This document shows positions 29,018 through 47,390 of a stretch of 64,000 nt of DNA, in pieces; the first letter of the stretch is position 1, and every line of letters begins with the position of its first letter. Source of the DNA: Mesorhizobium sp. ES1-4 (GTDB lineage: Bacteria; Pseudomonadota; Alphaproteobacteria; Rhizobiales; Rhizobiaceae). Position numbers and translations under genes: made by a program. The stretch is taken from the NCBI RefSeq assembly GCF_020164745.1, contig NZ_JAIUGV010000014.1, positions 62,001-126,000 on the forward strand, in the 5' to 3' direction. The notes beneath the pieces were generated by a model that was not told where the DNA came from, did no database searches, and was given only the letters and a program-made list of their open reading frames with translations.

Positions 29018-29090
29018 TTGTAAATTCTTTACGAATCGGACCATATTGTAACTGCGCAGTTTGGTTGAAATCTGCATTAATTGCGCAGTT
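29018..29090 (+). promoter_or_regulatory. repA promoter and RepA operator
   Basis: A possible -35 TTGTAA (29018-29023) and -10 CATATT (29042-29047), 18 bp apart. Just downstream are AACTGCGCAGTT (29050-29061, perfect palindrome) and AATTGCGCAGTT (29079-29090), 29 bp apart. GCGCA palindromes in this position are typical RepA/RepB autorepression sites in repABC operons. Confidence 0.6.
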
Positions 29091-29102
29091 CGAGGTTCGA
29101 CG

Positions 29103-30296
29103 ATGTTACAGACAAAAATCCAAGGCGGAGAGCAGGAACACCTGCCATCGATTTTATCGGCGGATTCACTCGAATTGTCGCGGCAGCTTCAACTGCATCA
29201 ACAGAAGATTTTCCCGCCGACGTCCCAGAAGACGATCCGGCATTTCACGCCTGCCGAAGCGGCTTACTATATCGGGATCGGCGAGGGCTATTTGAGACAA
29301 GTAGCTTCGGACGGACATGGGCCCGAACCGCTGGCCAATGGGCGCCGCGTCTACTCGCCCGATGATATGGAAAACATCCGTCGGTCGCTGGACGAGAAGA
29401 ACGGGTCACCAAAGTACGCTCCTGTCCGTCGCGCTGGGGAGAAGCTTCAGGTTATTGCCGTAATGAATTTCAAAGGCGGCTCGGCAAAGACAACGACTTC
29501 TGCGCATCTCGCACAGTATCTTGCGTTGCGCGGCTATCGGACTCTCGCCATCGATCTCGATCCTCAGGCCTCGTTGTCCGCTCTTTTTGGACACCAGCCT
29601 GAACTGGATGTCGGAGAGGGCGAAACCCTCTACGGAGCAATCCGTTACGAAGATCCGCGACCGATCGCTGAAATTGTCAGGGCTACATACACGCGGAACC
29701 TTCACATTTTGCCGGGCAATCTCGAGCTGATGGAGTTCGAGCATGAGACACCGAGAGCGATCACCTCGGGAACTGCCGAATCCATGTTTTTTGCCCGGAT
29801 TGGCGAGGTTTTGACAGACATCGAAAGCCTCTATGATGTCGTAATCATCGACTGTCCGCCTCAGCTTGGTTTTCTGACGATGTCGGCGTTGTGTGCAGCA
29901 ACGTCAGTGCTGATCACCGTGCATCCGCAGATGCTGGACGTGATGTCGATGAGCCAGTTCCTGGCGATGACGAGCGAAATGATGGCCGTTGTCGAAAGGG
30001 CAGGAGGCCGAACCAGCTATGATTGGATGCGTTATCTTGTTACCCGCTATGAGCCCAACGACGGTCCTCAAAGCCAAATGACAGGGTTCATGCGGGCCAT
30101 CTTCGGGAACCGGATGCTTCACAATCATATGCTGAAGTCGACTGCGATATCGGACGCGGGTGTTACCAAGCAGACGCTTTACGAGGTTGAGCGGGCGCAG
30201 TTCACGCGCGGCACCTATGACAGAGCGATGGAATCCCTGAACGCGGTGAACTCCGAGATTGAAGGGCTGCTGAGAGCGACCTGGGGGAGGAGATAA
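29103..30296 (+). CDS. repA: Plasmid partitioning protein RepA (ParA-type ATPase)
   Basis: 397 residues. N-terminal regulatory domain (HFTPAEAAYYIGIGEGYLRQ), then a ParA/MinD ATPase with the deviant Walker A FKGGSAKTTTSAHLA at residues ~138-152, DLDPQASLSALFG and Walker B DVVIIDCPPQLG. It drives plasmid segregation and represses the operon. I chose the ATG at 29103 with GAGG 9 nt upstream; the in-frame codon at 29061 lies in the operator. repB starts on its stop codon. Confidence 0.95.
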   Translation: MLQTKIQGGEQEHLPSILSADSLELSRQLQLHQQKIFPPTSQKTIRHFTPAEAAYYIGIGEGYLRQVASDGHGPEPLANGRRVYSPDDMENIRRSLDEKNGSPKYAPVRRAGEKLQVIAVMNFKGGSAKTTTSAHLAQYLALRGYRTLAIDLDPQASLSALFGHQPELDVGEGETLYGAIRYEDPRPIAEIVRATYTRNLHILPGNLELMEFEHETPRAITSGTAESMFFARIGEVLTDIESLYDVVIIDCPPQLGFLTMSALCAATSVLITVHPQMLDVMSMSQFLAMTSEMMAVVERAGGRTSYDWMRYLVTRYEPNDGPQSQMTGFMRAIFGNRMLHNHMLKSTAISDAGVTKQTLYEVERAQFTRGTYDRAMESLNAVNSEIEGLLRATWGRR

Positions 30297-31303
30297 TGTC
30301 CCGCAAAAATCTCATAGAGGTTTCATCTTCGGAAGGGGCCCTGACGCCAATGACATCAGTCAGGCCAATTGCGGGCTTTGTCGCTCCCGCGACTCGCGGT
30401 GCTCCCGTCGGTGGCATCACGAAAACCCTTGGCAACATCACGCAGAAGTTCGAACGGGCCCAGGACATCGAGAAGCAGCTGGCGCAAGGCCAGACAATTG
30501 TGGAACTCGATCCAGCCTTCGTTGATGGGTCGTTCATCAGAGATCGGCTCGGCATTGATTCCGTAGGGCTGGCCGAACTTGTCAGCCAAATCCGAGATCA
30601 CGGACAACAGGTGCCGATCTTGGTCCGACCGCATCCGGAAACCAATGGCCGATATCAGGTAGCCTATGGCCACCGCAGACTAGCAGCGGTTAGAGAATTG
30701 CGCCTCCGCGTTCGAGCCGTGATCCGCGATCTTTCTGATGACCAGCTTGTTGTCAGTCAGGGGCAGGAAAACAACGCTCGGACGAATCTTTCGTACATCG
30801 AGAGAGCGTTGTTTGCTGTGCGTCTCGAAGACCGTTCGTTCTCCCGTGAGGTCATCATGGCAGCGCTAAATGTGGACAAGGCTGCTCTGTCCAAGATGAT
30901 ATCGGTTGTCCGGGAGATACCAATCGGGCTGATAGAGGCGATTGGAGCCGCGCCGGAAGTCGGCCGCCGGAGATGGATGGAATTCGCGGAAACGCTGCCA
31001 AAGGCGAAAATTGACATGACGGCGCTCTTGGTCTCGTTGTCCGCGGACAACTCAAGTGATCAACGCTTTCAAAAGGCTGCCGACACTATCAAAAACCGAC
31101 TTGTCCAGCCTAAGGGGCAGGCCTCCCAACCTTGGGCGCCCACGGACAAATCGGTTAGCGTAATCGTGAAAACCACCGCGAAGAGGGCCACCGTTACCCT
31201 AGAGGCCGCGAACGGGCCGCGCTTCGCCAAATATATCGCAGGACGGCTGGATGACCTCTACGAGGCCTTCCTAAAGTCCACCAACGCAACCACTGGAGAG
31301 TAG
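30296..31303 (+). CDS. repB: Plasmid partitioning protein RepB (ParB-type)
   Basis: 335 residues. ParB nuclease-like/CTPase domain with QIRDHGQQVPILVRPHPE and YGHRRLAAVRELRLRVRA (a GxxRxxA motif), then QENNARTNLSYIERA and an HTH (MAALNVDKAALSKMISVVRE). It binds parS and forms the partition complex with RepA. GGGGGAGG precedes the ATG, which overlaps the repA stop by one base. One parS copy lies in its own coding sequence. Confidence 0.95.
   Translation: MSRKNLIEVSSSEGALTPMTSVRPIAGFVAPATRGAPVGGITKTLGNITQKFERAQDIEKQLAQGQTIVELDPAFVDGSFIRDRLGIDSVGLAELVSQIRDHGQQVPILVRPHPETNGRYQVAYGHRRLAAVRELRLRVRAVIRDLSDDQLVVSQGQENNARTNLSYIERALFAVRLEDRSFSREVIMAALNVDKAALSKMISVVREIPIGLIEAIGAAPEVGRRRWMEFAETLPKAKIDMTALLVSLSADNSSDQRFQKAADTIKNRLVQPKGQASQPWAPTDKSVSVIVKTTAKRATVTLEAANGPRFAKYIAGRLDDLYEAFLKSTNATTGE
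31036..31051. promoter_or_regulatory. parS-type centromere site 2, inside repB
   Basis: Second perfect copy of GTTGTCCGCGGACAAC, read in repB as LSADNS. Internal or flanking parS sites are known in repABC replicons. Identity over all 16 bases with 28962-28977 in coding sequence supports function. Confidence 0.8.
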
Positions 31304-31315
31304 AAACCGCAAAAG

Positions 31316-31365
31316 AAAAAGGCCCCCGAGCGACTTTCGTCGTGGAAGCCCTTCTCCGTAGTAGC
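31316..31365 (-). ncRNA. Antisense counter-transcribed RNA (incompatibility RNA) of repABC
   Basis: In the repB-repC gap the minus strand has -35 TTGACA (31400-31395), 17 bp, -10 GATTCT (31377-31372), and an intrinsic terminator: GGCTTCC..CGAC GAAA GTCG..GGGGGCC followed by TTTTT (31342 to ~31316). This is the position and fold of the ctRNA that controls repC expression and incompatibility. Ends are estimated from promoter and terminator. Confidence 0.85.
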
Positions 31366-31461
31366 TGACTGAGAATCGCATTTCCCCGAATCACTGTCAA
31401 GAGTCGTTGGCGCCGTTTCGGCGGGCAGGGTTCTTTTGCCTTATTGAAGGCGAAGGAAGAA

Positions 31462-32667
31462 ATGGAAACGGGTATTGCAACGACGCCCTTTGGGCGGCGG
31501 CCGATGTCGCTTGCCCTAGTGCAAGTGAATACGGCATCGCGAGAGATTCCTGAAGGAGCTCTCGTCGAAAAATGGCAGGTCTATCGCTGGCTGTGTGAAG
31601 GCAAGACCATCGTGGGCGTGGGAGATCGCGCACTGGCCGTGCTGAGCGGGCTCTTGTCCTTCTATCCGGACGACCAGATCAGCGAGGAAAACGGCCTGAT
31701 GGTATTTCCGTCGAATGCGCAGCTATCGCTGCGTGCGCACGGCATGGCCGATTCCACGCTGCGAAGAAACCTGGCGGAATTGGTCAGTTGCGGTCTGATC
31801 ATCCGTCGCGACAGCCCGAACGGTAAAAGGTTTGCTCGCAAGGGAAAGGGCGGAGCCGTCGAGGAAGCCTTCGGGTTCTCGTTGGCGCCGTTGCTGACGC
31901 GGGCCGCGGAGTTTCAGCATGCGGCCGAGCAGGTCCGTGCCGACATCCGGGTGCTCAAATTGATGCGGGAGCGGATCACGCTCCATCGCCGTGACATACA
32001 CAAGCTTGTCGAGGCTGCGATCGAGGAAGGCGCTCCTGGGGACTGGGGAGCTATCTGGCTGCGTTTTAGGGCCATCGTGGATGCGATTCCGAGACGAGCA
32101 GGTTTGCCAGAACTGGAGTGGATCGTCGCGGATATGACAGCACTCCATGATGAAGTGGATATGTTGCTGGAAAGTTTCATGAAATCCACGAATCCAAGCG
32201 CCAATGAGTCCCAAAATGAGCGGCAGCAATCTGATTCAAACACAGACTCCACTTTTGTATTTGAACCGGCTTTAGAGAAAAGCTGCGCGGCGGTCGAACC
32301 AAGACCTGCACCCGACGGGAAGCCGAAAAGCTATCCGATAGGGCTTGTGCTGAAAGCCTGCCCCGAAATTGCTGATTATGCCGTGGACGGGATTAGAAAC
32401 TGGCGCGATTTGATGATCACCGCGGCGCAGGTGCGGGGCTACCTGGGCGTTTCGCCTTCGGCGTATGAGGAGGCTTGCCATACAATGGGCCAGGAGGTTG
32501 CAGCGATCGTGATTGCCTGCATCCTCCAACGGGCGCAGCACATCAACTCGGCTGGCGGCTATCTGCGGGTGCTGACCGAAAAGGCGAGGGCAGGGGAGTT
32601 CTCTGTCGGGCCGATGCTGATGGCCGCGCTTAAGGCCAACGGCTCGACCGTGAGAATGACCGGATGA
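31462..32667 (+). CDS. repC: Replication initiator RepC
   Basis: 401 residues, the initiator of repABC plasmids. N-terminal domain with WQVYRWLCEGKTIVGVGDRA and ALAVLSGLLSFYPDD; C-terminal domain with ACPEIADYAVDGIRNWRDLM and VIACILQRAQHINSAGGYLR. AAGGAAG precedes the ATG at 31462; an in-frame TTG at 31444 is less likely. The AT-rich stretch at ~32195-32270 inside the gene is the usual place of the origin. Expression is probably limited by the ctRNA. Confidence 0.95.
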   Translation: METGIATTPFGRRPMSLALVQVNTASREIPEGALVEKWQVYRWLCEGKTIVGVGDRALAVLSGLLSFYPDDQISEENGLMVFPSNAQLSLRAHGMADSTLRRNLAELVSCGLIIRRDSPNGKRFARKGKGGAVEEAFGFSLAPLLTRAAEFQHAAEQVRADIRVLKLMRERITLHRRDIHKLVEAAIEEGAPGDWGAIWLRFRAIVDAIPRRAGLPELEWIVADMTALHDEVDMLLESFMKSTNPSANESQNERQQSDSNTDSTFVFEPALEKSCAAVEPRPAPDGKPKSYPIGLVLKACPEIADYAVDGIRNWRDLMITAAQVRGYLGVSPSAYEEACHTMGQEVAAIVIACILQRAQHINSAGGYLRVLTEKARAGEFSVGPMLMAALKANGSTVRMTG

Positions 32668-36617: not shown

Positions 36618-38849
36618 ATGACGTTTGATCTGACAAAATTGGGCTGGAAAGCCTTTCAGGATCTCGCCACAGCCGTTGCGGCCGAGATCCTGAAACGCCC
36701 GGTGCAGACCTTCCTGGGGTCGAACGATGGAGGTCGAGATGGAGCGTTTCTTGGGACTTGGACCGGTGACGACGGCCAGCCGGTCAAGTCGACGCTCCAG
36801 TGCAAGTACAAGGGGAAGCCGGGCGCCAACCTGACGTTGGCCAACCTCAAGAGCGAGCTGCCAAAGGCAGTGCTGCTGGCTCAGAACGGGCTCGCTGAGG
36901 ATTATGTGATCCTGACCAATGCCGGCGTCTCGGGTGACGCGGACAAGGAGATTTGTGCCGCCTTCGAGGCGGCTGGCGTTAAGCGATGTCAGGTATTTGG
37001 CGGCTCGTGGATCCAGCAACAGCTCGACCAGAGTGTGCGTTTGCGCATGCTGGTGCCCCGCATCTACGGGATCGGCGACCTCTCGCACGTCATCACCGAC
37101 CATGCCTATAAACAGGCCAAGGCAATCCTCGACAATATGGGATCCGATCTCAGCTGCTTCGTGCCGACCGACGCCTATCGACAGGCGGTCAAGGCGCTCC
37201 AAGAGCATCGCTTCGTCATCTTGCTGGGTGATCCGGCCTCGGGCAAATCGACGATCGCGGCGATCCTGGCGCTGGGCGCACTCGACGACGGCTGTATTGG
37301 CGCCGTGAAGATCAACGCGCCAGACCAGTTGCACTTTTGGCATCCTGGCGAGAAGCAGTTGCTATGGGTTGACGACGCCTTCGGGTCCAATCACTTCGAC
37401 GTGGACCGGATGAGCCGGTGGAATGCCGAACTCGGCACGATGCGTGCGGCGATCGAGGGCGGCGCCCGGATCATCTTTACGTCCCGCAACTATATCTGGG
37501 GAGCGGCCCGACCCCACCTAAAGCAGAGCGCGTTCCGCTTGTTCAAGGAGAGCCAGGTCGTCGTAAATGTCCAAGAGCTGACCGATAATGAGCGCGCGCA
37601 GATGCTTTATAATCACGTCCGCCGGATCCAGCCTCAGGCAATGCGCCGGCGGCTGAAGCTGTTTATGCCCGCTGTCGCTGCCAACAAAGCATTTCTGCCA
37701 GAAACCGCACGACGGCTCGGTGATCCGCTGTTCATCAGCAAGCTGAAGCTGAGCTCGGGCCGGATGAAGGAGCTTGTCGAGCAGCCGGTCGAGTTTCTGA
37801 CCGAAGTGCTCGAACAGCTCGATGCGCCATCGCTCGGCGCGATCGCATTGATTTTCCTCAATTCGGAAAGCGGCGTGCCGTCGCCGATCGGGCAGCACCC
37901 GGCGCTCGAAATGGTCACGCGGCTCTTGGGCGTGCAGCCGGCGGCTGTCGCCATGGCAATGGAGCATTTGAATGACAGCCTCACGCGGCGCCTTTCTGCT
38001 GACGACGGTGATCGCTGGGTGTTCCGACATCCGACCGTGACCGATGCATTCGCCGAGATAGTTGCCCGCTCCCCCGAACTGATCGAGCTTTATGTGCATG
38101 GCGCCAAGGTCGATCGGCTAATGCGCGAGGTGGTATGCGCACCGTTGACTGCTGAACATGCCCATGTCCGCGTCCCGGCCTCGCTGTTTGCAGTGCTCTT
38201 GGAGAGATTTCAGGATCGTTCACTCGACGAGAGTTTCAAATCGTTCCTTGGGGCCCGTGCGGGTGACGGCTTTCTCGGCAAGATCGTCGTTGCGCGGCCA
38301 GACATACTCGAATGGGCAGCAACGACAAATACCAGCTACCTTTCGTCGGGCAGTCTGGTGCTCTTGGCGGCCCTCAACTCATACGGTCTCCTGCCCGAAG
38401 CAGCCCGAGAGAGGATCGTGGAACGCGTGGACGATGACACGATCACCTGGATGCGGACTGATGTGTTTGCGAACAATATGTACCGGCAGATCTTCACTCA
38501 CGAGGAGTTCGATGACCTTGCGGCGCGCTTCCGCAAAGAATGGCTGAATAATCTCGGGAACCTGCTCGACGACCTGCGCGACCGTTTCTCCTCAGACAAC
38601 GAGCTCGGTCTCTATGAGGAGTTCAAGGACAGCATGGAAAAGGCCGAGGCCTTCTTCTTCCCCGAGGGCCGGACAGAGCTGCTCGATACCTTCTATTCCG
38701 AAGTCAGCACACATATCAGCACGCTCGAGGAGGACAGGTCCTCCTCTGAACCTTCCGTATGGTCGGCGCAGGCGACAACGTCGGCAAGTATCTCCGCGAC
38801 GTCGGCTACGGCAGACAGCAGTACGATCTTCGACGATGTCGATGATTAG
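36618..38849 (+). CDS. Nuclease-STAND NTPase (restriction-like domain + nSTAND3-type ATPase)
   Basis: 743 residues. Residues ~1-150: Mrr/PD-(D/E)XK-like nuclease domain with SNDGGRDGAFLGTW and LQCKYKG (D...QxK). Residues ~190-450: STAND-type ATPase with Walker A LLGDPASGKSTIAA (~203) and Walker B LLWVDDAFG (~250). The C-terminal part is helical, probably the sensor, ending in a Ser/Thr/Asp-rich tail. Such proteins are predicted or shown to sense phage proteins and trigger nuclease activity (Avs-like). It follows scpB by 25 nt and may be co-transcribed. Confidence 0.82.
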   Translation: MTFDLTKLGWKAFQDLATAVAAEILKRPVQTFLGSNDGGRDGAFLGTWTGDDGQPVKSTLQCKYKGKPGANLTLANLKSELPKAVLLAQNGLAEDYVILTNAGVSGDADKEICAAFEAAGVKRCQVFGGSWIQQQLDQSVRLRMLVPRIYGIGDLSHVITDHAYKQAKAILDNMGSDLSCFVPTDAYRQAVKALQEHRFVILLGDPASGKSTIAAILALGALDDGCIGAVKINAPDQLHFWHPGEKQLLWVDDAFGSNHFDVDRMSRWNAELGTMRAAIEGGARIIFTSRNYIWGAARPHLKQSAFRLFKESQVVVNVQELTDNERAQMLYNHVRRIQPQAMRRRLKLFMPAVAANKAFLPETARRLGDPLFISKLKLSSGRMKELVEQPVEFLTEVLEQLDAPSLGAIALIFLNSESGVPSPIGQHPALEMVTRLLGVQPAAVAMAMEHLNDSLTRRLSADDGDRWVFRHPTVTDAFAEIVARSPELIELYVHGAKVDRLMREVVCAPLTAEHAHVRVPASLFAVLLERFQDRSLDESFKSFLGARAGDGFLGKIVVARPDILEWAATTNTSYLSSGSLVLLAALNSYGLLPEAARERIVERVDDDTITWMRTDVFANNMYRQIFTHEEFDDLAARFRKEWLNNLGNLLDDLRDRFSSDNELGLYEEFKDSMEKAEAFFFPEGRTELLDTFYSEVSTHISTLEEDRSSSEPSVWSAQATTSASISATSATADSSTIFDDVDD

Positions 38850-39038: not shown

Positions 39039-39614
39039 TCAAAGGAGCAGACCACGAAGCTCCAGGACCAAACTGGTGAGATCGCCCGCATAGCTCGCAA
39101 CCATCGCCGGCAAAAATGTTTCTCTTCTGACGCGACTGAAATCCATGGGATGTCCCGCGCGCTCGCCGAGCATCGCCATGAATGACAGTTGCGATCGGCC
39201 ATTGCCTTCCCGGAAAGGATGGATCGCATTCAGCTCGCCTAGGAAATGGGCGGCCTGGGCCACGAAAGCCTCAGCGGTCTCCGCTCCGATCACCGAGGGA
39301 AGCGCATTGAAAAGCCGCTTCATCTCGCCGTCGATATACTCCGGAAAGCAGAACGGATTGCCCGCCTTCGCAGTTCGCACCGTGCGGTACTTGCCAGCCC
39401 AGCTGTAGACATCCTGGAACAGGTGGTAATGGACGCGGCGATAGTGGCTCGGGTCATAACGACCGCGCGGTAGCGGCTCGCCAGCGCGCAGCGTTGTCAT
39501 TTCAAGCTCAAAGGCCTCGAGCAATGCGGGATCCCGCAAGCCAAGCTTGTTCTTTAGGATTGTGGTACCTTTATAGGCGTAGGGATCGTCGAAGGCGTCG
39601 TAACCGACCGACAT
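39039..39614 (-). CDS. Fic/DOC family toxin
   Basis: 191 residues. Complete Fic core: YHLFQDVYSWAGKYRTVRTA, NPFCFPEYIDGEMKRLF (the flap and target-binding part), and the active-site motif HPFREGNGRSQLSFMAML with His and both Arg/Gly residues. Members usually transfer AMP from ATP to a target protein. The ATG overlaps the antitoxin stop by one base (TGATG), so the pair is coupled. Confidence 0.92.
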   Translation of the reverse strand: MSVGYDAFDDPYAYKGTTILKNKLGLRDPALLEAFELEMTTLRAGEPLPRGRYDPSHYRRVHYHLFQDVYSWAGKYRTVRTAKAGNPFCFPEYIDGEMKRLFNALPSVIGAETAEAFVAQAAHFLGELNAIHPFREGNGRSQLSFMAMLGERAGHPMDFSRVRRETFLPAMVASYAGDLTSLVLELRGLLL

Positions 39615-39823
39615 CACCCGCGGGACTTGGCGTCCAGATAAGCGCGGATGATCTCGGCCCGCTGATCGTCAGGCGAAAGCTTGCGCTTCTTTAAATCCGC
39701 AAGACGCTTGCGGCTGGCCGCGCTCAAGTTGATGCCTTCGACGGCTGTGATCGCCGCGAATGTGCGCTGTCCGAGGATATGGCTTGGCGCGCTAGGCGTC
39801 AGACCCTTGGTGGATTTCTTCAT
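39614..39823 (-). CDS. Small antitoxin partner of Fic
   Basis: 69 residues, beginning MKKSTKGLTPSAPSHILGQR; GGGGAAG lies 4 nt upstream. The helix FAAITAVEGINLSAASRKRL contains an ITAVEG segment resembling the Fic inhibitory motif [S/T]xxxE[G/N], but with the Thr one residue too close to the Glu. The C-terminus (RAEIIRAYLDAKSRG) is typical of Fic antitoxins. It probably inserts its Glu into the ATP site of Fic. Confidence 0.75.
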   Translation of the reverse strand: MKKSTKGLTPSAPSHILGQRTFAAITAVEGINLSAASRKRLADLKKRKLSPDDQRAEIIRAYLDAKSRG

Positions 39824-39856
39824 GCTTCCCCTGTCATCGAAGGCGACACTGACCAA

Positions 39857-40063
39857 CTAGCGGTCGAGCAGCTTACGCGCCTGTGAAATGCGGTCCTTGA
39901 GCCCGGCTTGAAAGCTTGGGTCACGTCTGCGGGTCTCAATATGAGTGGTTATCGCTGCCCGAATAATATCGGACACGGGCCGATTTTCAACGCTGGCGAC
40001 CATCTCAAGGGCCTGAGCCTGCTCTTCGGAGAGGCGAACAGTCATCGCTTTAGCTTGTTTCAT
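39857..40063 (-). CDS. Ribbon-helix-helix antitoxin-like regulator
   Basis: 68 residues. N-terminal RHH: AMTVRLSEEQAQALEMVASV, ENRPVSDIIRAAITTHIETR. Likely the DNA-binding repressor of the Fic module, which begins 33 nt downstream. The MTVRLSEEQ start at 40045 is an alternative; no strong ribosome-binding site is seen for either. It is divergent from the ubiquitin-like operon over an 81-bp gap with GGTATC repeats. Confidence 0.82.
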   Translation of the reverse strand: MKQAKAMTVRLSEEQAQALEMVASVENRPVSDIIRAAITTHIETRRRDPSFQAGLKDRISQARKLLDR

Positions 40064-40105
40064 GGCGCTGTTTTGCACCAAAACATGCCTCTTGTCAACC
40101 ACCTT

Positions 40106-40127
40106 GGTATCGTGGTATCACGGTATC
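40106..40127. promoter_or_regulatory. Triple GGTATC operator shared by Fic module and Ubl operon
   Basis: Three GGTATC hexamers at 40106, 40114 and 40122, with an exact 8-bp period, lie in the divergent promoter region. Tandem short repeats are typical of RHH repressors. A TTGTCA (40092-40097) and GTATCA (40115-40120) could be the -35/-10 of the rightward operon, overlapping the repeats. Confidence 0.65.
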
Positions 40128-40144
40128 AAATTACGGAGGTGACG

Positions 40145-40420
40145 ATGAGCGAAATTCAGAATGACGAGCACGGGCGCCCTGACCGTCCCAAGATGTTCGA
40201 GATCAAGATAGATCGCATGAACTACAAGGTCTCCGAGGCGATTCTGACGGGAGCGCAGTTGCGGCAGTTGCCTGAGCCCAACATTGGGCCGGATCGCGAT
40301 CTCTTCGAGGTTGTGCCGGGCGGATCCGACGTAAAGATCGAGGCTGACGCGAAGGTCGAGATGCGCAATGGTCTGCGCTTGTTCACGGCGCCGGCGCAGA
40401 TCAATCCTGGCCGTGGATGA
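40145..40420 (+). CDS. Multiubiquitin-domain (Ubl) protein, single domain
   Basis: 91 residues beginning MSEIQNDEHGRPDRP, with ACGGAGGTGACG upstream. Residues ~18-88 match one Multi_ubiq beta-grasp domain: FEIKIDRMNYKVSEAILTGA, QLRQLPEPNIGPDRDLFEVV, then VEMRNGLRLFTAPAQINPGR. It is the presumed modifier of the operon. The C-terminus is PGRG, not the classical GG, so JAB trimming or another chemistry would be needed for conjugation. It is followed 12 nt later by the E2-like gene. Confidence 0.85.
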   Translation: MSEIQNDEHGRPDRPKMFEIKIDRMNYKVSEAILTGAQLRQLPEPNIGPDRDLFEVVPGGSDVKIEADAKVEMRNGLRLFTAPAQINPGRG

Positions 40421-40432
40421 GGGAAGGCGACG

Positions 40433-40822
40433 ATGCTGCCAGCGGTCGACCAGGACTATCTGCAGGCGCGGGTGCCGGGCCATAGCGTTTCGCTCGATGG
40501 CGGCATGATCGCTATCATAATCCCATCCTTCCCGCTGCCGTCGGGATTCACGGCTGTCGCAGCCGATCTCCTGCTGCGGCTCTCGCCCGGGTACCCGGAT
40601 GTTGCGCCGGACATGTGGTGGTTTGAGCCAGCGGTGCACCGCACGGATGGGCAGGTGATCGAGGCGACCCAGTCGCAGGAGGCCTATCTCGGCCGTACGT
40701 GGCAGCGTTGGTCGCGCCACTTTCAAGCCGGACAATGGCGGTCCGGCATCGACTCGCTCGAAAGCTATCTGACCCTCGTCAGGAAGGAACTTGACGCTGC
40801 CGGGAGGGCGCGCGCTGCATGA
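40433..40822 (+). CDS. E2-like protein, prokaryotic E2 family E
   Basis: 129 residues. Family E pattern: LPAVDQDYLQARVPGH, IIIPSFPLPSGFTAVAADLL, LSPGYPDVAPDMWWFEP, then WQRWSRHFQAGQWRSGIDSL. The UBC-like fold is clear, but the protein contains no cysteine at all, so it cannot form a thioester; lack of the catalytic Cys is known for this family. It may act as a scaffold. AAGGCGACG precedes the ATG, and the stop overlaps the next gene by 4 nt. Confidence 0.85.
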   Translation: MLPAVDQDYLQARVPGHSVSLDGGMIAIIIPSFPLPSGFTAVAADLLLRLSPGYPDVAPDMWWFEPAVHRTDGQVIEATQSQEAYLGRTWQRWSRHFQAGQWRSGIDSLESYLTLVRKELDAAGRARAA

Positions 40823-42204
40823 TCACCACCTTGGTCCTTCCGGGCTCGCTCGCCGATGAGATCGCGACAGCCTCGCGCAACCCGATTGAATGCGCTGCGG
40901 TCCTTCTTGCGCGGCGTGTCGACACCGGCGCCGAGGTTCGTCTTCTTGGGCGATCGCTGCATTGGGTGCCGCAGGCGGCCTATTGCGAGCAGAGTTCGCA
41001 CCACATGCTGATCCGCTCCGAAGGCTATGTCGGCGCGCTCGGCACTGCCGAAAAAGACGGTGCGGTCCCGATCTGGTTTCACACCCATCCCGGCCAGGAG
41101 GGCGTTCCCCTGCCGAGCCCCCACGACCGACAGGTCGACCGGGAAATAGGTGATCTCTTTCAATTGCGCAGCGGCTCTGGCGTATACGCGACGCTGATAG
41201 CGTCACCGCGTGGCGAGAACTTTGTCTTTAGCGGCGAGGTCACGCCTGAAGACGGCGAGACGGCGCCGATTGATCGCGTGTGGATCGTCGGCGATCGCTG
41301 GCGCCTTCTGCCGAGTCTCGCGAGCCAAGTCGCGAAGCCAGACGCGATCTTCGATCGCAATGTGCGCGCTTTTGGCCCCGATATTCAAGGTGTGCTCGGC
41401 GATATTCGGGTTACCATTGTCGGGGCCGGCGGCACCGGGTCGGCCGTCGCGGAACAGCTTGTTCGGCTCGGCGTGAGACATCTCCAACTGATCGACAACG
41501 ATACCCTGTCGGCGAGCAACGTAACTCGCGTGTATGGCTCGACACCGCGGGAAGTCGGCCAGCCGAAGGTGGACGTGCTGGCGGCGCATCTGACGCGGAT
41601 CGCTCCCGAACTTCGCTGTTCAACAATCCAGGGCATGGTGACGGTCAAGCATGTTGCCCAGGCCCTTCGGGCAAGCGATCTCGTCTTCGGCTGTACCGAT
41701 GACAACGCAGGCCGGCTCGTCTTGTCGCGACTGTCGACCTTCTTGTTGACCCCGGTGATTGACGTGGGCGTTTTGCTCAGCAGCGATCGTAGAGGGGTGT
41801 TGACCGGCATTGACGGCCGAATAACGACGCTAACGGCCGGCGCGGCCTGCCTCGTCTGCCGCGGTCGGATCGATATGGCACGTGCGGCCGCCGAGATGCG
41901 CACGCCCGAGGAGCGGCAGCGATTGGCAGACGAGGGCTACGCGCCGGCCTTAGGCCAGGTCGAACCGGCGGTCGTTGCCTTCACGACCGCCGTCGCCGCC
42001 GCCGCAGTCAACGAACTGCTCGATCGCCTGATCGGCTACGGTCCCTCTGAGCGGCCGACCGAGACGCTGCTGAGGCTTCACGAACGCGAGATCTCGACCA
42101 ATGAGGCCCTACCGCGCCAGGGCCACTATTGCGATGTGGCCCAGGGCAAGTGGGGGGCGGGCGATGAGGAGCCGTTCCTAGGCCAGTTGTGGGGCACGGC
42201 ATGA
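40819..42204 (+). CDS. JAB deubiquitinase-like domain fused to E1-like (ThiF) adenylyltransferase
   Basis: 461 residues. N-terminal JAB/JAMM domain (residues ~1-160) with a complete zinc motif: Glu in NPIECAAVLL, WFHTHPGQEGVPLPSPHDRQ (HxH...SxxD). C-terminal E1/ThiF domain (~190-440): ATP loop VGAGGTGSAVAEQLVRLG, LIDNDTLSASNVTRVYG (Asp, Asn, Arg), QPKVDVLAAHL (Lys), VFGCTDDNAGRLV, and a CLVC pair. It would both trim the Ubl and activate it by adenylation. Coupled to both neighbours by ATGA overlaps. Confidence 0.92.
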   Translation: MITTLVLPGSLADEIATASRNPIECAAVLLARRVDTGAEVRLLGRSLHWVPQAAYCEQSSHHMLIRSEGYVGALGTAEKDGAVPIWFHTHPGQEGVPLPSPHDRQVDREIGDLFQLRSGSGVYATLIASPRGENFVFSGEVTPEDGETAPIDRVWIVGDRWRLLPSLASQVAKPDAIFDRNVRAFGPDIQGVLGDIRVTIVGAGGTGSAVAEQLVRLGVRHLQLIDNDTLSASNVTRVYGSTPREVGQPKVDVLAAHLTRIAPELRCSTIQGMVTVKHVAQALRASDLVFGCTDDNAGRLVLSRLSTFLLTPVIDVGVLLSSDRRGVLTGIDGRITTLTAGAACLVCRGRIDMARAAAEMRTPEERQRLADEGYAPALGQVEPAVVAFTTAVAAAAVNELLDRLIGYGPSERPTETLLRLHEREISTNEALPRQGHYCDVAQGKWGAGDEEPFLGQLWGTA

Positions 42205-42536
42205 AGATTTCCTGGTGGCAATGGCTTCCGATCTGGCGCTGGCGCGTGGTCGGTGCGGCCGAGTCGGCCGACGAGGTGCCGGACAGGTTGCCGCGCAACG
42301 GTGTCGCGCTCATTGGCGACGTCAATCGAACGAAGTGGATCGTCTTTGATTGCCCTTGTCGAACTGGACATCGGATTATGCTCAACGCCGATCCAAGTCG
42401 GCGGCCCCACTGGACGTTGAACCAAGTCGTTCGACTAACCATTTCTCCAAGTGTGGATTTCAAAGGAAGTCAACGACGGTGTCATTACTTCATTCGTAAC
42501 GGCAGGATTGCCTGGGCTAAGGATAGCGACCGATGA
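42201..42536 (+). CDS. DUF6527-type protein
   Basis: 111 residues beginning MKISWWQWLPIWRWRVV. It fits the DUF6527 pattern known from Ubl operons: WIVFDCPCRTGHRIMLNADP, SRRPHWTLNQVVRLTISPSV, CHYFIRNGRIAWA. The CPC plus a later Cys-His suggest a zinc site. Role unknown. Overlaps both neighbours by 4 nt. Confidence 0.75.
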   Translation: MKISWWQWLPIWRWRVVGAAESADEVPDRLPRNGVALIGDVNRTKWIVFDCPCRTGHRIMLNADPSRRPHWTLNQVVRLTISPSVDFKGSQRRCHYFIRNGRIAWAKDSDR

Positions 42537-43429
42537 ACGATAGCGGAGAAGCAGCCGAAGAGCCGCAACCAATTACGCCGCAGCCGCCGCGTGCGATCGA
42601 AAAGACACCCATGTACACGGCGATGAATGCGGCGCGCTATCAACGCCAAACACTCATCCGCGACATCGAAAGGGACCAGCCCAAATTGATCTGCTACGTC
42701 GCAGGCAACAAGGCCGCCGTCGACCGCATCGATACGCTTGGCTTCGTCGACATGCTTCACAACATCAATCCGGGCGACCCCATCGATCTCCTGCTGCATA
42801 CGCCCGGCGGCGACATTGATGCAGCCGAAAAGCTAATTACGCTGGTCAGGAGCGCGGCCGGCGAGGATGGGCAACTAAGGGTCATCGTACCTGATTATGC
42901 CAAGAGTGCCGGAACATTAATGGCGCTCGGCGCCAACACGATCGTCATGAGCGACTCGTCGGAGCTCGGACCGATCGATCCTCAGGTCTCATCCAAGGAT
43001 GGCAACGGCTCCGACGTAGTTTATTCCGTTTTGACCTATCTGAACGCCTATGACGCGGCAAAAAAGGCGCTTCGCGAAGCACCCGGCGATCTTGCGGATA
43101 GGATCACCTTCGAAAAATTCGACCCCACGATCGTGCGCAAGTTCCAGTCGGTCAGGGACCGGGCGCGGTCCTTCGCCGAGAATCTGCTCAAACGGAGGGG
43201 CAAGAATTTCTCGAAAATCACCACCGAATTGATGGACGTCGCCAAATATCAGTCGCATGCTCAGATGATCGGCTGGGAAGCCGCGACCGAGATCGGTTTG
43301 ACGGTCGAATACATACCAGCAACCGACGTGGTCTGGCGCAAATATTGGGCGCTCTACTGCCATTTGCGTCTGGCTATCGAGAGCGAGCAACGGATTTTCG
43401 AATCGAATTATGTGTCGCTGCTGCTTTAG
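42533..43429 (+). CDS. Clp-fold serine protease, SDH (SppA-like) family
   Basis: 298 residues. SDH-family ClpP/crotonase fold: DPIDLLLHTPGGDIDAAEKL, IVPDYAKSAGTLMALGANTI, MSDSSELGPIDPQVSSKDG. These are the substrate-binding Gly-Gly strand, the Ser-containing helix and the ELGPIDPQ segment of the family. There is no signal peptide or clear membrane segment, so it is probably cytosolic. The start overlaps DUF6527 by 4 nt, which makes it the fifth gene of the Ubl operon and suggests a degradation or processing step. Confidence 0.85.
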   Translation: MNDSGEAAEEPQPITPQPPRAIEKTPMYTAMNAARYQRQTLIRDIERDQPKLICYVAGNKAAVDRIDTLGFVDMLHNINPGDPIDLLLHTPGGDIDAAEKLITLVRSAAGEDGQLRVIVPDYAKSAGTLMALGANTIVMSDSSELGPIDPQVSSKDGNGSDVVYSVLTYLNAYDAAKKALREAPGDLADRITFEKFDPTIVRKFQSVRDRARSFAENLLKRRGKNFSKITTELMDVAKYQSHAQMIGWEAATEIGLTVEYIPATDVVWRKYWALYCHLRLAIESEQRIFESNYVSLLL

Positions 43430-45442: not shown

Positions 45443-46111
45443 ATGTCCAACCAGTTTGATCAGATACCATTTGGGGCTGCAGAGTTCGCGGATAACCCAG
45501 AACCTCGCTGTCCATGCCTCCTTCTGCTCGACACGTCCTATTCCATGAACGGAGCGCCGATCGACGCGCTGAACCAGGGCCTTGTCGCGTTCAAGGACGA
45601 GCTCGCGGCCGACAGCCTGGCGATGAAACGCGTCGAGGTCGCCATCGTCACCTTCGGACCGGTCAACATCGTCGCGCCTTTCCAGACCGCTGACCTATTC
45701 ACGCCCAGCACGCTGGCGACCAGTGGCGACACCCCAATGGGTGCGGCGATCGAGCAAGGCCTCGAGATGTTGCGACGTCGGAAAGATGAGTACCGCGCGA
45801 ACGGCATCTCCTATTACCGCCCCTGGGTCTTTCTGATGACGGACGGCGCGCCCACGGACAGCATCGTTGCTGCCGAACACGCGGTCAAATCCGGCGAGGC
45901 GGCAAAGGCGTTTTCGTTCTTCGCCGTTGGCGTCGAGGGTGCCAACATGGACATCCTTGCCAAGCTCTCCACACGCCAGCCGCTCAAGCTAAGTGGCCTC
46001 AAATTCCGCGAGCTGTTCTCATGGCTCTCCGCATCGCTGTCGGGCGTCTCGCAGTCGCAGGTCGGACAGACCGTGGCGCTCCAATCTCCCGCAGGTTGGG
46101 CCGAGGTGTGA
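45443..46111 (+). CDS. VWA-domain protein (TerY-like)
   Basis: 222 residues. VWA fold with the MIDAS motif [20 protein letters not shown] (DxSxS), a Thr in [10 protein letters not shown] and [13 protein letters not shown] (TDG). First gene of a VWA-PP2C-kinase set, the TerY-P triad described from tellurite-resistance and stress loci. The next gene overlaps by one base. Confidence 0.88.
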
Positions 46112-46908
46112 TGTCTTGGCGCATAGCGTCGGCTAGCGCCATCGGCACTTCGCATGTCACGGCCGGCAAGCCCTGTCAGGATAATTCGGTCCATGCCCTG
46201 ATCGAGGGCAGGGAAGGTCCAATCCTCGCGGCCGCTGTCTGCGACGGCGCTGGCAGTGCGGCGCACTCGGAGGTTGGGTCTTGGCTAGCCGGGCAGAACC
46301 TGCTGGAGCTCATTTTCGTGCACTTCACAGAGAACGGGGCGCTCGATCAGATCGACCGGCCAAAAGCGTTGGGCTGGGTGACCGAAATTGCCGAGCGCAT
46401 CGCCGCTCATGCTCGCGCCCTCGGGCACGAGGTGCGCGATTATGCATGCACGCTGCTGGTTGCCATCCTCGGCCCCACAAGCACCGTGTTCTTTCAGGTC
46501 GGTGACGGCGCGATGGTTGTTTCGCATGGCAGTGAAGACGGATGGTCCTACGTGTTCTGGCCGCAGCACGGCGAGTTTGCCAATACGACCAACTTCGTCA
46601 CGTCGTCAAATGTCGCAGATGTCCTCGAATTCGAGTTCGCGCCGCGGCGCATTGATGAGGTCGCGCTGTTCTCGGACGGTATCGAGAACCTCGTCTTGCA
46701 TCAGGCTTCGCGCAGCGTTCATCAGCCTTTCTTCGATACGATGTTCCCGGCTGTCAGACGATCGGCGGCGGCGGGCGAGGATTCCACGCTGTCGGATGGG
46801 CTGAGGGCTTATCTGCTTTCGCCGCAGATTTGCGAGAGGACCGATGATGACAAGTCGTTGATCCTGGCCACGAGATCGCCAGCTGAAGCGATGGTGGCCG
46901 CAAAATGA
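46111..46908 (+). CDS. PP2C-family serine/threonine phosphatase
   Basis: 265 residues. PP2C_2 pattern: ASAIGTSHVTAGKPCQDNSV (metal site entry), LAAAVCDGAGSAAHSEVGSW (DGxG), TVFFQVGDGAMVV, VALFSDGIENLVL (SDG) and DDDKSLILATR. Second gene of the VWA-PP2C-kinase triad; it would reverse phosphorylation by the kinase downstream. Coupled to both neighbours. Confidence 0.88.
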   Translation: MSWRIASASAIGTSHVTAGKPCQDNSVHALIEGREGPILAAAVCDGAGSAAHSEVGSWLAGQNLLELIFVHFTENGALDQIDRPKALGWVTEIAERIAAHARALGHEVRDYACTLLVAILGPTSTVFFQVGDGAMVVSHGSEDGWSYVFWPQHGEFANTTNFVTSSNVADVLEFEFAPRRIDEVALFSDGIENLVLHQASRSVHQPFFDTMFPAVRRSAAAGEDSTLSDGLRAYLLSPQICERTDDDKSLILATRSPAEAMVAAK

Positions 46909-47390
46909 ATGCCAAGGTCCGCGAGGTGTTCACCCTGCGAGGGGAAGTCCTCAAGCTTGGCGAAATCGTCGGCCAGGGCGGCGAGGGCGCCGTCTACGAC
47001 CTAGCTGCACACAAGAACCATGTCGCCAAAATCTACCACCGGCCGCTCGAGCAGCAGAGGATCGACAAGATCCGTGCGATGGGCAAGATCAAGACCGATT
47101 CACTCGAAAAGCTAACGGCCTGGCCGACGGGGCTCGTCTGTTCCAAGGACAGCAAGCCCATCGGGCTGATTATGCCGAAGATCAGCGGGCGCAAGAGCAT
47201 CCATCAGCTCTACAGCCCCAAAAGCCGCAGAACTGACTTTCAGCGGGTTGATTGGCGATTTCTGACACGTGTGGCAGCAAACACCGCGAGGGCATTTGCG
47301 GCCGTTCACGACAACCCTCATCGAGCGAGCGGCGCTCGCACCTCTCGGCGGAGCGCTATTGCAGCGCTTAATCTTCTTGCCGGGGACTGA
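46905..47390 (+). pseudogene. Protein kinase of the triad, truncated
   Basis: Begins MNAKVREVFTLRGEVLKLGE, with the nucleotide loop IVGQGGEGAVYDL and the Lys of HVAKIYHRPLEQQ. The kinase N-lobe continues to TARAFAAVHD at ~47312, just before where the HxD catalytic loop should come. From there the frame reads unrelated NPHRASGARTSRRS to a stop at 47390. The C-lobe is missing, so the kinase is dead. The junction joins a TniB-like fragment. Confidence 0.8.

What the first reader, a model, noticed from the sequence alone, without database searches (positions are those of the whole stretch)
40145..43429. Five-gene ubiquitin-like operon that includes a Clp-fold protease
Seen: Ubl, E2-like, JAB-E1 fusion, DUF6527 and SDH-type protease genes are on one strand with a 12-nt gap and then three 4-nt overlaps. 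Known: Ubl/E1/JAB/E2-like clusters exist in bacteria and some act against phages. I do not recall an SDH/Clp-fold protease described as the last, translationally coupled member. Inference: the protease may degrade or process Ubl-tagged proteins, giving a minimal tag-and-destroy pathway.
Basis: partly seen in the sequence, partly recalled or inferred. Interest (0 to 1): 0.88.

Follow-up and report, generated by a model that had tools for sequence, protein, structure and literature searches.

The report
Ubiquitin-like operon with added protease gene
A plasmid-type contig of a soil bacterium related to Mesorhizobium carries a known kind of bacterial ubiquitin-like gene set (Bub) with an extra, co-inherited ClpP-fold protease gene at its end, a place that a few relatives fill with other enzymes, which suggests that the protease may be what the ubiquitin-like machinery acts through.

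Summary
In detail: Ubl, cysteine-less E2, JAB-E1 fusion, DUF6527 and SDH/ClpP-fold protease lie on one strand with a 12-nt gap and three 4-nt overlaps. Genes 1-4 are a Bub operon: E1 and E2 match Citrobacter BubCD and BubB in the PDB, and the set is Iyer 2006's type 6e.

Gene 5 is conserved but not general. No protease match lies in 34 of 34 informative Bub loci from genome draws (44, 64, 101), yet 12 of 13 members of the window's own clade in the E1 tree have it, in three phyla, co-diverging with E1 (r=0.84, 11 loci). The 13th has a dCTP-deaminase-like gene in the same ATGA-coupled place, a distant Bub locus a ResIII-helicase-like gene. The slot looks swappable, so an effector reading fits better than tag-and-destroy.

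The clade has its own likely regulator: a divergent RHH gene, usually with Fic, and an operator of three 8-bp repeats. The contig carries repABC.

Function is untested; the key Bub papers could not be read.

The parts
40145..40420 (+). Single-domain ubiquitin-like protein (Multi_ubiq, BubA-like), C-terminus ...INPG plus two residues
   Evidence: PF14452 25.0 bits; C-termini compared
40433..40822 (+). E2-like protein (Prok-E2_E, BubB-like), no cysteine at all; W, H, W, D around the WSRH motif invariant in 51 aligned E2s
   Evidence: PF14462 120 bits; Citrobacter BubB E=9.6e-10; conservation; Cys count
40819..42204 (+). JAB deconjugase fused to E1 adenylating domain (BubCD-like)
   Evidence: Citrobacter BubCD 9ea4 E=1.9e-26 over residues 24-455; JAMM residues H88, H90, S100, D103, invariant in 48 of 48
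42201..42536 (+). DUF6527 putative zinc-binding protein
   Evidence: PF20137 71.9 bits; C51, C53, H57, C94 and H95 invariant in 9 clade members
42533..43429 (+). ClpP-fold SDH-type serine protease, the clade-specific fifth gene; candidate catalytic S125, H242, D149 and oxyanion G92-G93
   Evidence: PF01972 61.3 bits; predicted model pLDDT 85.5; ClpP chains Z 14.2 over residues 33-266; residues invariant in 13 sequences, numbering
40105..40128 (+). Putative operator: three 8-bp direct repeats TGGTATCG TGGTATCA CGGTATCA
   Evidence: two exact pattern hits, 0.01 expected; conserved in the loci with the window-type RHH gene
39857..40063 (-). Divergent ribbon-helix-helix protein, probable repressor (start codon inferred; the longest ORF reaches 40102)
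   Evidence: RelB-like NCBIfam hits below their cut-offs; homologues annotated as CopG-family RHH; conserved in the clade
39614..39856 (-). Small antitoxin-like partner of Fic (no family hit; longest ORF)
   Evidence: homologues beside Fic in L002, L003, L046, L099, L100, L101
39039..39617 (-). Fic-domain protein, divergent from the operon
   Evidence: PF02661 61 bits; PADLOC PDC-S04 209.5 bits; Fic beside eight other clade loci

Best explanation
This is a plasmid-type Bub operon carrying its own effector. Shown by sequence: the Bub core (Ubl, cysteine-less E2, JAB-E1, DUF6527) is followed by a coupled ClpP-fold serine protease that has diverged together with the core; the same place holds other enzymes in two other Bub loci; and a divergent RHH gene with a tandem-repeat operator faces the operon. 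Inferred: RHH represses the operon. When it is relieved by a mobile-element or stress signal, E1 and E2 attach Ubl to a target, JAB removes it, and DUF6527 helps choose the target. The attachment or removal (perhaps on the protease itself) switches the protease, which then cuts host or invader proteins. The Ubl cascade is thus the control unit and gene 5 the interchangeable effector, analogous to the way CBASS E1-E2 proteins prime a partner enzyme (recalled).
For: 12 of 13 window-clade members in the E1 tree have the protease directly after DUF6527, across Pseudomonadota, Spirochaetota and Actinomycetota; they were found through E2 or E1, not through the protease. It co-diverges with E1 (r=0.84, Mantel p=0.0005, 11 loci), much as DUF6527 does (r=0.86). 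In the 13th member (L007, Geobacter MAG) a dCTP-deaminase-like gene with HAE and PCxxC motifs takes the same ATGA-overlap position. In L139 a ResIII-helicase-like protein (918 aa, DEAH, SAT and QxxGRxxR motifs) takes it. Three other loci carry a TCAD9/APH kinase-like gene overlapping the E1 end. Candidate catalytic Ser, His and Asp are invariant in 13 proteases, non-Bub ones included. The neighbourhood holds Fic and nSTAND3 genes that match PADLOC candidate defence models, and repABC.
Against: No activity, toxicity or defence has been shown for this operon, and Bub operons have not been shown to protect against phage (PMC13373217, passages). The slot swap rests on one locus in the clade (a MAG contig) and one distant locus. 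Most Bub loci examined have no coupled fifth gene, so an effector is not a general need. A Ubl-processing role is not excluded: all 14 clade Ubls carry a tail after the conserved Gly. One drawn locus, L062, has an AAA ATPase ORF 23 nt behind DUF6527 (longest start; no protease there), which could hint at a degradation link instead.
Confidence: 0.43

Rival explanations
1. Ubl maturation or deconjugation: the protease trims the 1-7 residue tail behind the conserved NPG glycine of the Ubl, or cuts Ubl ester/isopeptide conjugates, as a second, serine-type deubiquitinase beside JAB.
For: All 14 clade Ubls (window included) have 1-7 residues after NPG, while 10 of 18 separate-gene Ubl rows from other lineages end exactly at their conserved Gly (one further row, a broken L048 fragment, dropped). 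The coupling ties its dose to the Ubl operon.
Against: L007 keeps a 6-residue tail without the protease. Eight of the 18 other rows also have a tail, and 20 of 23 fused Ubl-E2 rows are in loci without a protease match (two of these, L063 and L124, end on a contig edge), so a similar cut, if needed, is made without it. JAMM residues are invariant in 48 of 48 E1s.
Confidence: 0.25
2. Tag and destroy: Ubl-tagged proteins are delivered to the protease for degradation.
For: ClpP fold and co-operonic with a complete conjugation core. L062 has an AAA ATPase ORF behind DUF6527, though without a protease.
Against: No AAA unfoldase among the five genes. SDH/SppA-type proteins are not known to me to process folded proteins on their own (recalled). 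No protease match in 34 of 34 informative drawn Bub loci; replaced by a non-protease in L007.
Confidence: 0.14
3. Neighbouring cargo: the protease is an independent defence or toxin gene that sits behind Bub for transcription only.
For: Related SDH proteases occur without annotated Bub genes in prophages and plasmids. In the second clade (R. gallicum type) the gene lies 50-142 nt behind DUF6527, and is broken in 3 of 4 records; in R. gallicum it has a small partner gene related to one behind a Methylosinus SDH gene. In L002 of the window clade the protease is frameshifted.
Against: In the window clade it is coupled, present in 12 of 13 and co-diverges with E1 across phyla. The protease tree rejects one common clade for the two sets (p-AU 1.2e-5).
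Confidence: 0.13

Closest known systems
Bub (bacterial ubiquitination-like) operons; PDB Citrobacter BubCD and BubB
   Same: JAB-E1 fusion matches BubCD at E=1.9e-26 and E2 matches BubB at 9.6e-10; same order, DUF6527 after E1
   Different: A Citrobacter freundii plasmid Bub operon (not necessarily the strain in the PDB) has Ubl and E2 fused, a winged-HTH gene next to an unnamed gene upstream, and no protease after DUF6527. The window has a single separate Ubl, RHH/Fic upstream and the protease downstream.
Operon type 6e of Iyer, Burroughs and Aravind 2006 (PMC1779556)
   Same: polyUbl, inactive E2/RWD-like domain, JAB-E1 fusion, metal-binding protein (passages)
   Different: Row 6e lists no serine protease; the terms ClpP, SppA and serine protease have no occurrence in that paper's main text
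Bil (BilABCD)
   Same: Ubl, E2, E1, JAB in an operon (PMC11354881, passages)
   Different: Bil E2 uses a catalytic Cys (CEHH motif); this E2 has no Cys
SDH-type ClpP-like proteases (PF01972)
   Same: fold and active-site residues
   Different: Below the NCBIfam Clp_like_SDH equivalog cut-off (73.3 against 250); those of the window clade form their own clade
CBASS Cap2 (E1-E2) priming of a partner enzyme
   Same: Proposed logic only (recalled): conjugation machinery controls an enzyme in the same operon; the E1 domain is related to Cap2
   Different: No cyclase among the five genes; separate cysteine-less E2; the analogy is inference

Membership tests
Bub / Iyer type 6e | Multi_ubiq-type Ubl | tested here: met
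   PF14452 25.0 bits against 24.5; marginal, single domain
Bub / Iyer type 6e | E2/RWD-like protein without catalytic Cys | tested here: met
   PF14462 120 bits; 0 Cys in 129 residues; BubB match
Bub / Iyer type 6e | JAB fused to E1 | tested here: met
Bub / Iyer type 6e | Small metal-binding protein after E1 | tested here: met
   DUF6527. The paper's C-x3-C...H-x2-C spacing is not the one here: the window has CxC...CH; metal binding itself not tested
Bub | Conjugation through a serine oxyester (recalled, not read) | not testable with these tools
   E2 WSRH serine is aligned in 43 of 51 sequences, gap in 8
Bub | CapW, CapH+CapP or CapK+CapS next to the operon (common, not defining: 278 of 544 in PMC13373217) | tested here: not met
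   The genes directly upstream are RHH, antitoxin-like and Fic
SDH_protease PF01972 | Family score and ClpP fold | tested here: met
   61.3 bits; Z 14.2 on a predicted model
SDH_protease PF01972 | Active-site Ser, His, Asp | tested here: met
   S125, H242, D149 invariant in 13; geometry not measured
Bil | Catalytic Cys in E2 | tested here: not met
Ubl-directed degradation system | Unfoldase ATPase partner in the operon | tested here: not met
   None among the five genes; one acting from elsewhere is not excluded

The most novel reading that the evidence does not exclude
Bub operons have a swappable, translationally coupled effector slot behind DUF6527 (SDH protease, dCTP-deaminase-like, ResIII-helicase-like) and a second one between E1 and DUF6527 (TCAD9/APH kinase-like), so a cysteine-less ubiquitin-like cascade serves as the on/off control of interchangeable effectors; in the window clade it is run by an RHH repressor with its own operator.
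Probability: 0.38. Interest if true: 0.82.

Novelty: new variant of a known kind. Interest (0 to 1): 0.6.

Why it matters
What Bub conjugation is for is open; PMC13373217 states that Bub operons have not been shown to protect against phage (passages). A coupled enzyme with a clear active site gives a direct handle: mutate Ser125 and watch conjugates, growth and phage. If the fifth place is an effector slot, it explains what some Bub cascades act through and gives a way to find more effectors by reading what follows DUF6527.

Tried and rejected
Viral contigs: scans with the protease and with E1 gave no relative (exact short-peptide patterns, so only close ones could be found). Phages: 7 records with distant SDH proteases, at most 30% identity. 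PDB: no solved relative of DUF6527 (one chance hit at E=0.46; none) or of the Ubl; the profile of 13 proteases found only NfeD/PH1510 and ClpP chains, none named Bub. The DUF6527 model is poor (pLDDT 65) and its fold search had no hit under E=0.001, so its fold is open. The sigma-70 scan found no promoter at 40000-40200.

Considered and dropped: the second protease clade (L048, L105, L107, L131) as support for a general Bub protease. It is a different SDH subfamily (which used only the larger piece of the broken copies and did not include L131), 50-142 nt away depending on locus and start codon, broken in 3 of 4 records. In L105 a small gene follows that is related to one behind a Methylosinus SDH gene.

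Other same-strand ORFs behind DUF6527 that I did not treat as coupled partners: L062 (455 aa, gap 23 at the longest start, AAA ATPase), L126 (279 aa, gap 91, no Pfam hit), L034 and L120 (109-113 aa, gaps 69 and 57; L034 no Pfam hit), and L035, L037, L041 and L060 (not scanned; some may be chance ORFs). L141 lacks a DUF6527 match and has a UvrD-like gene downstream.

Papers: Ye et al. 2026 and Gong et al. 2025 (Bub) and Chambers et al. 2024 are not held, so I cannot say whether they mention this protease. Searches listed (capped lists, title and abstract start only) no paper that joins Bub to an SDH or ClpP-fold protease. PMC13373217, PMC12687455, PMC1779556 and PMC11354881 were seen as passages only.

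Counts: dropped before counts were L043-L045 (weak E2 hits without E1), L063, L122 and L124 (contig ends inside the operon), and in the E1 tree L062, L068, L102, L122 and L124 (short or broken E1). L068 and L141 have no DUF6527 match but are kept among the 34, with no protease match. L042 has only about 750 bases behind DUF6527. The HMMs of the survey were built iteratively from the window proteins and these loci, so weak relatives could be missed. The operator score uses the window's own repeat as consensus, so the window's rank is circular; one RHH-less locus, L121, scored 14 against 13 for its best shuffle.
Full report
OBSERVATION. The five genes are at the stated coordinates and spacing: Ubl 40145-40420, a 12-nt gap, E2 40433-40822, then 4-nt overlaps into JAB-E1 40819-42204, DUF6527 42201-42536 and protease 42533-43429. 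Pfam names every one. The Ubl score is marginal (25.0 against 24.5 bits) and JAB is just under its cut-off, but the JAMM residues are there.

WHAT THE CORE IS. Against the PDB the E1 protein finds Citrobacter BubCD over nearly its full length (E=1.9e-26) and the E2 finds Citrobacter BubB (9.6e-10). The same four-gene set was described in 2006 as operon type 6e: polyUbl, inactive E2/RWD-like domain, JAB fused to E1, and a metal-binding protein (PMC1779556, passages). That row lists no serine protease, and a term search of that paper found no ClpP, SppA or serine protease. PMC13373217 (passages) counts 544 Bub operons, ties 219 to CapW or CapH+CapP and 59 to CapK+CapS regulators, and says that phage protection has not been shown for Bub. 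I recall, but could not read, that Bub conjugation runs through a serine oxyester; the window E2 has no cysteine, and the serine of its WSRH motif is aligned in 43 of 51 E2s, with a gap in the other 8.

HOW COMMON THE FIFTH GENE IS. Genome draws with PF14462 gave matches in 9 of 398 genomes of the phylum, 12 of 297 of the order, 19 of 394 of the family (a smaller family draw found 11 of 199) and 5 of 293 Gammaproteobacteria (the window genome counts in the first three, and three weak hits without E1 in the first). Together these gave 37 other Bub loci; three end on a contig edge inside the operon. None of the remaining 34 has a protease match in the fetched stretch. Ten Bub plasmid loci outside the two protease clades, picked by hand (L047, L109, L110, L142-L148), lack it too. 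By contrast, close relatives of the window operon nearly all have it. They were found through E2 (8 loci) or E1 (the 7 best plasmid records, of which I fetched 5), not through the protease. In the E1 tree of 48 rows the window clade holds 13 rows, 12 with protease, one of them (L002) frameshifted; Microbacterium L102, left out of the tree because its genes are broken, has it too. With the start codons I chose, DUF6527 and protease overlap by 4 nt in 10 of the 12; in L006 and L008 there are gaps of 11 and 5 nt (annotated starts). Protease-bearing rows belong to Pseudomonadota, Spirochaetota and Actinomycetota, the one without to Thermodesulfobacteriota. Protease and E1 distances correlate over 11 loci (r=0.84) about as well as DUF6527 and E1 (r=0.86). 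For comparison, 38 of 385 genomes of the class hold any SDH-type relative at E<=0.001, so constant adjacency is not chance.

A SECOND, WEAKER CASE. Rhizobium plasmids L048, L105, L107 and L131 have an SDH protease behind DUF6527, at 50-142 nt. The protease tree rejects one common Bub clade (p-AU 1.2e-5; 15 rows against 35, L131 not included), so this looks like a separate event. Three of the four copies are broken, and in L105 a small gene follows that is related to one behind an SDH gene in Methylosinus with no Bub gene annotated nearby. I give it little weight.

OTHER ENZYMES IN THE SAME PLACE. The single window-clade tree member without the protease, L007 (Geobacter MAG), has another gene whose ATG overlaps the DUF6527 stop in the same ATGA manner: a 528-aa deaminase (PF00383, 56 bits) with HAE and PCHNC motifs; plasmid relatives at 32-38% identity are in part annotated as anti-phage dCTP deaminase. 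In L139 (Gammaproteobacteria) the ATGA-coupled gene behind DUF6527 is a 918-aa ResIII-helicase-like protein. In L031, L041 and L042 a TCAD9/APH-like gene overlaps the E1 end and precedes DUF6527 (in L031 the TCAD9 score is under its cut-off, the APH score over). Most loci examined show no large coupled gene behind DUF6527; a few have looser same-strand ORFs, among them an AAA ATPase in L062, listed under Tried and rejected. These are few cases, but they point to interchangeable coupled partners.

THE PROTEASE. The predicted model is good (pLDDT 85.5) and has the ClpP fold (Z 14.2, 3.5 A over 173 residues; Foldseek's best hits are PH1510/NfeD and ClpP). G92-G93, S125, D149 and H242 are invariant among 13 proteases, including Bub-free ones. 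This predicts an active serine protease; triad geometry was not measured. No unfoldase is among the five genes.

UBL TAIL. All 14 clade Ubls end in a conserved NPG plus 1-7 variable residues, whereas 10 of 18 separate-gene Ubl rows of other lineages stop at their conserved Gly and 8 have a tail. That keeps a processing role for the protease alive, but L007 has the tail and no protease, and 20 of 23 fused Ubl-E2 rows lie in loci without a protease match (two of them on a contig edge).

REGULATION. 12 clade loci, window included, have a divergent RHH gene of the window's type; L007, L008 and 42 other loci scanned (three of them not Bub) have none by phmmer, and nine of the 12 also have a Fic gene beside it, split in L002 (window). 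L146, not in that scan, has an annotated CopG-type RHH gene but no such operator. A threefold 8-bp repeat, TGGTATCN, lies between RHH and Ubl: 0.01 hits expected in the window, 2 found. Scored over 63 upstream stretches, the 12 RHH loci rank first (15-20 of 21, each above its own 100 shuffles) and no other exceeds 14. RHH is thus the likely operon repressor in place of the Cap regulators; its binding is inferred.

CONTEXT. The contig carries repABC (29061-32667), an integrase, ScpB- and DUF1403-like genes and an nSTAND3 protein upstream of the operon, and five clade operons lie on plasmids, so this is probably mobile cargo.

VERDICT. A real, conserved five-gene variant of Bub. The first four genes are known; I found no description of the fifth gene, its slot or the RHH operator in what I could read, but the two main Bub papers were out of reach. 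Mechanism: effector control most likely (0.43), Ubl processing next (0.25), tag-and-destroy less so (0.14). All functional steps are inference.

Noticed in passing
window 29061-32667: repA, repB and repC genes: the window contig is a repABC replicon (plasmid or chromid), or carries one.
   Followed up: partly
window 39039-40063 (-): Divergent RHH, antitoxin-like and Fic genes, conserved with the operon in most clade loci; Fic matches PADLOC candidate PDC-S04.
   Followed up: partly
window 36618-38849: nSTAND3 NTPase matching PADLOC candidate PDC-S73 (E=1.1e-27), upstream of the Fic module.
   Followed up: no
window 45443-47390: VWA, PP2C and a short ORF that I read as a truncated kinase (161 aa, no Pfam hit) in a row: resembles a TerY-P-type triad (recalled name).
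   Followed up: no
L130:5977-7050, L049:5992-6987: SDH-type proteases in E. coli lambdoid prophage-like regions, one right behind the repressor gene with a small ORF after it (a place known for exclusion genes, recalled), one between antiterminator Q and holin.
   Followed up: no
L105:4812-5914, L129:5890-7106: An SDH protease plus a related 68-76 aa protein in a row, once behind Bub and once without annotated Bub genes.
   Followed up: partly
L031, L041, L042: TCAD9/APH kinase-like gene between Bub E1 and DUF6527.
   Followed up: partly
L032:10996-11253, L067:6578-6877: A second single-domain Ubl gene directly behind DUF6527 in two Bub loci of the window's order.
   Followed up: no
L062, ORF behind DUF6527 (- strand): An AAA ATPase ORF follows a Bub operon that has no protease.
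   Followed up: no
L002:4540-5438 and L002:1055-1667: In Mesorhizobium waimense both the protease and the Fic gene are split into two frames while the four core genes are open; assembly error not excluded.
   Followed up: partly
L146:3035-3250: A CopG-type RHH gene also sits next to a Methylomagnum Bub operon without the TGGTATC operator, beside HTH and ImmA genes.
   Followed up: no
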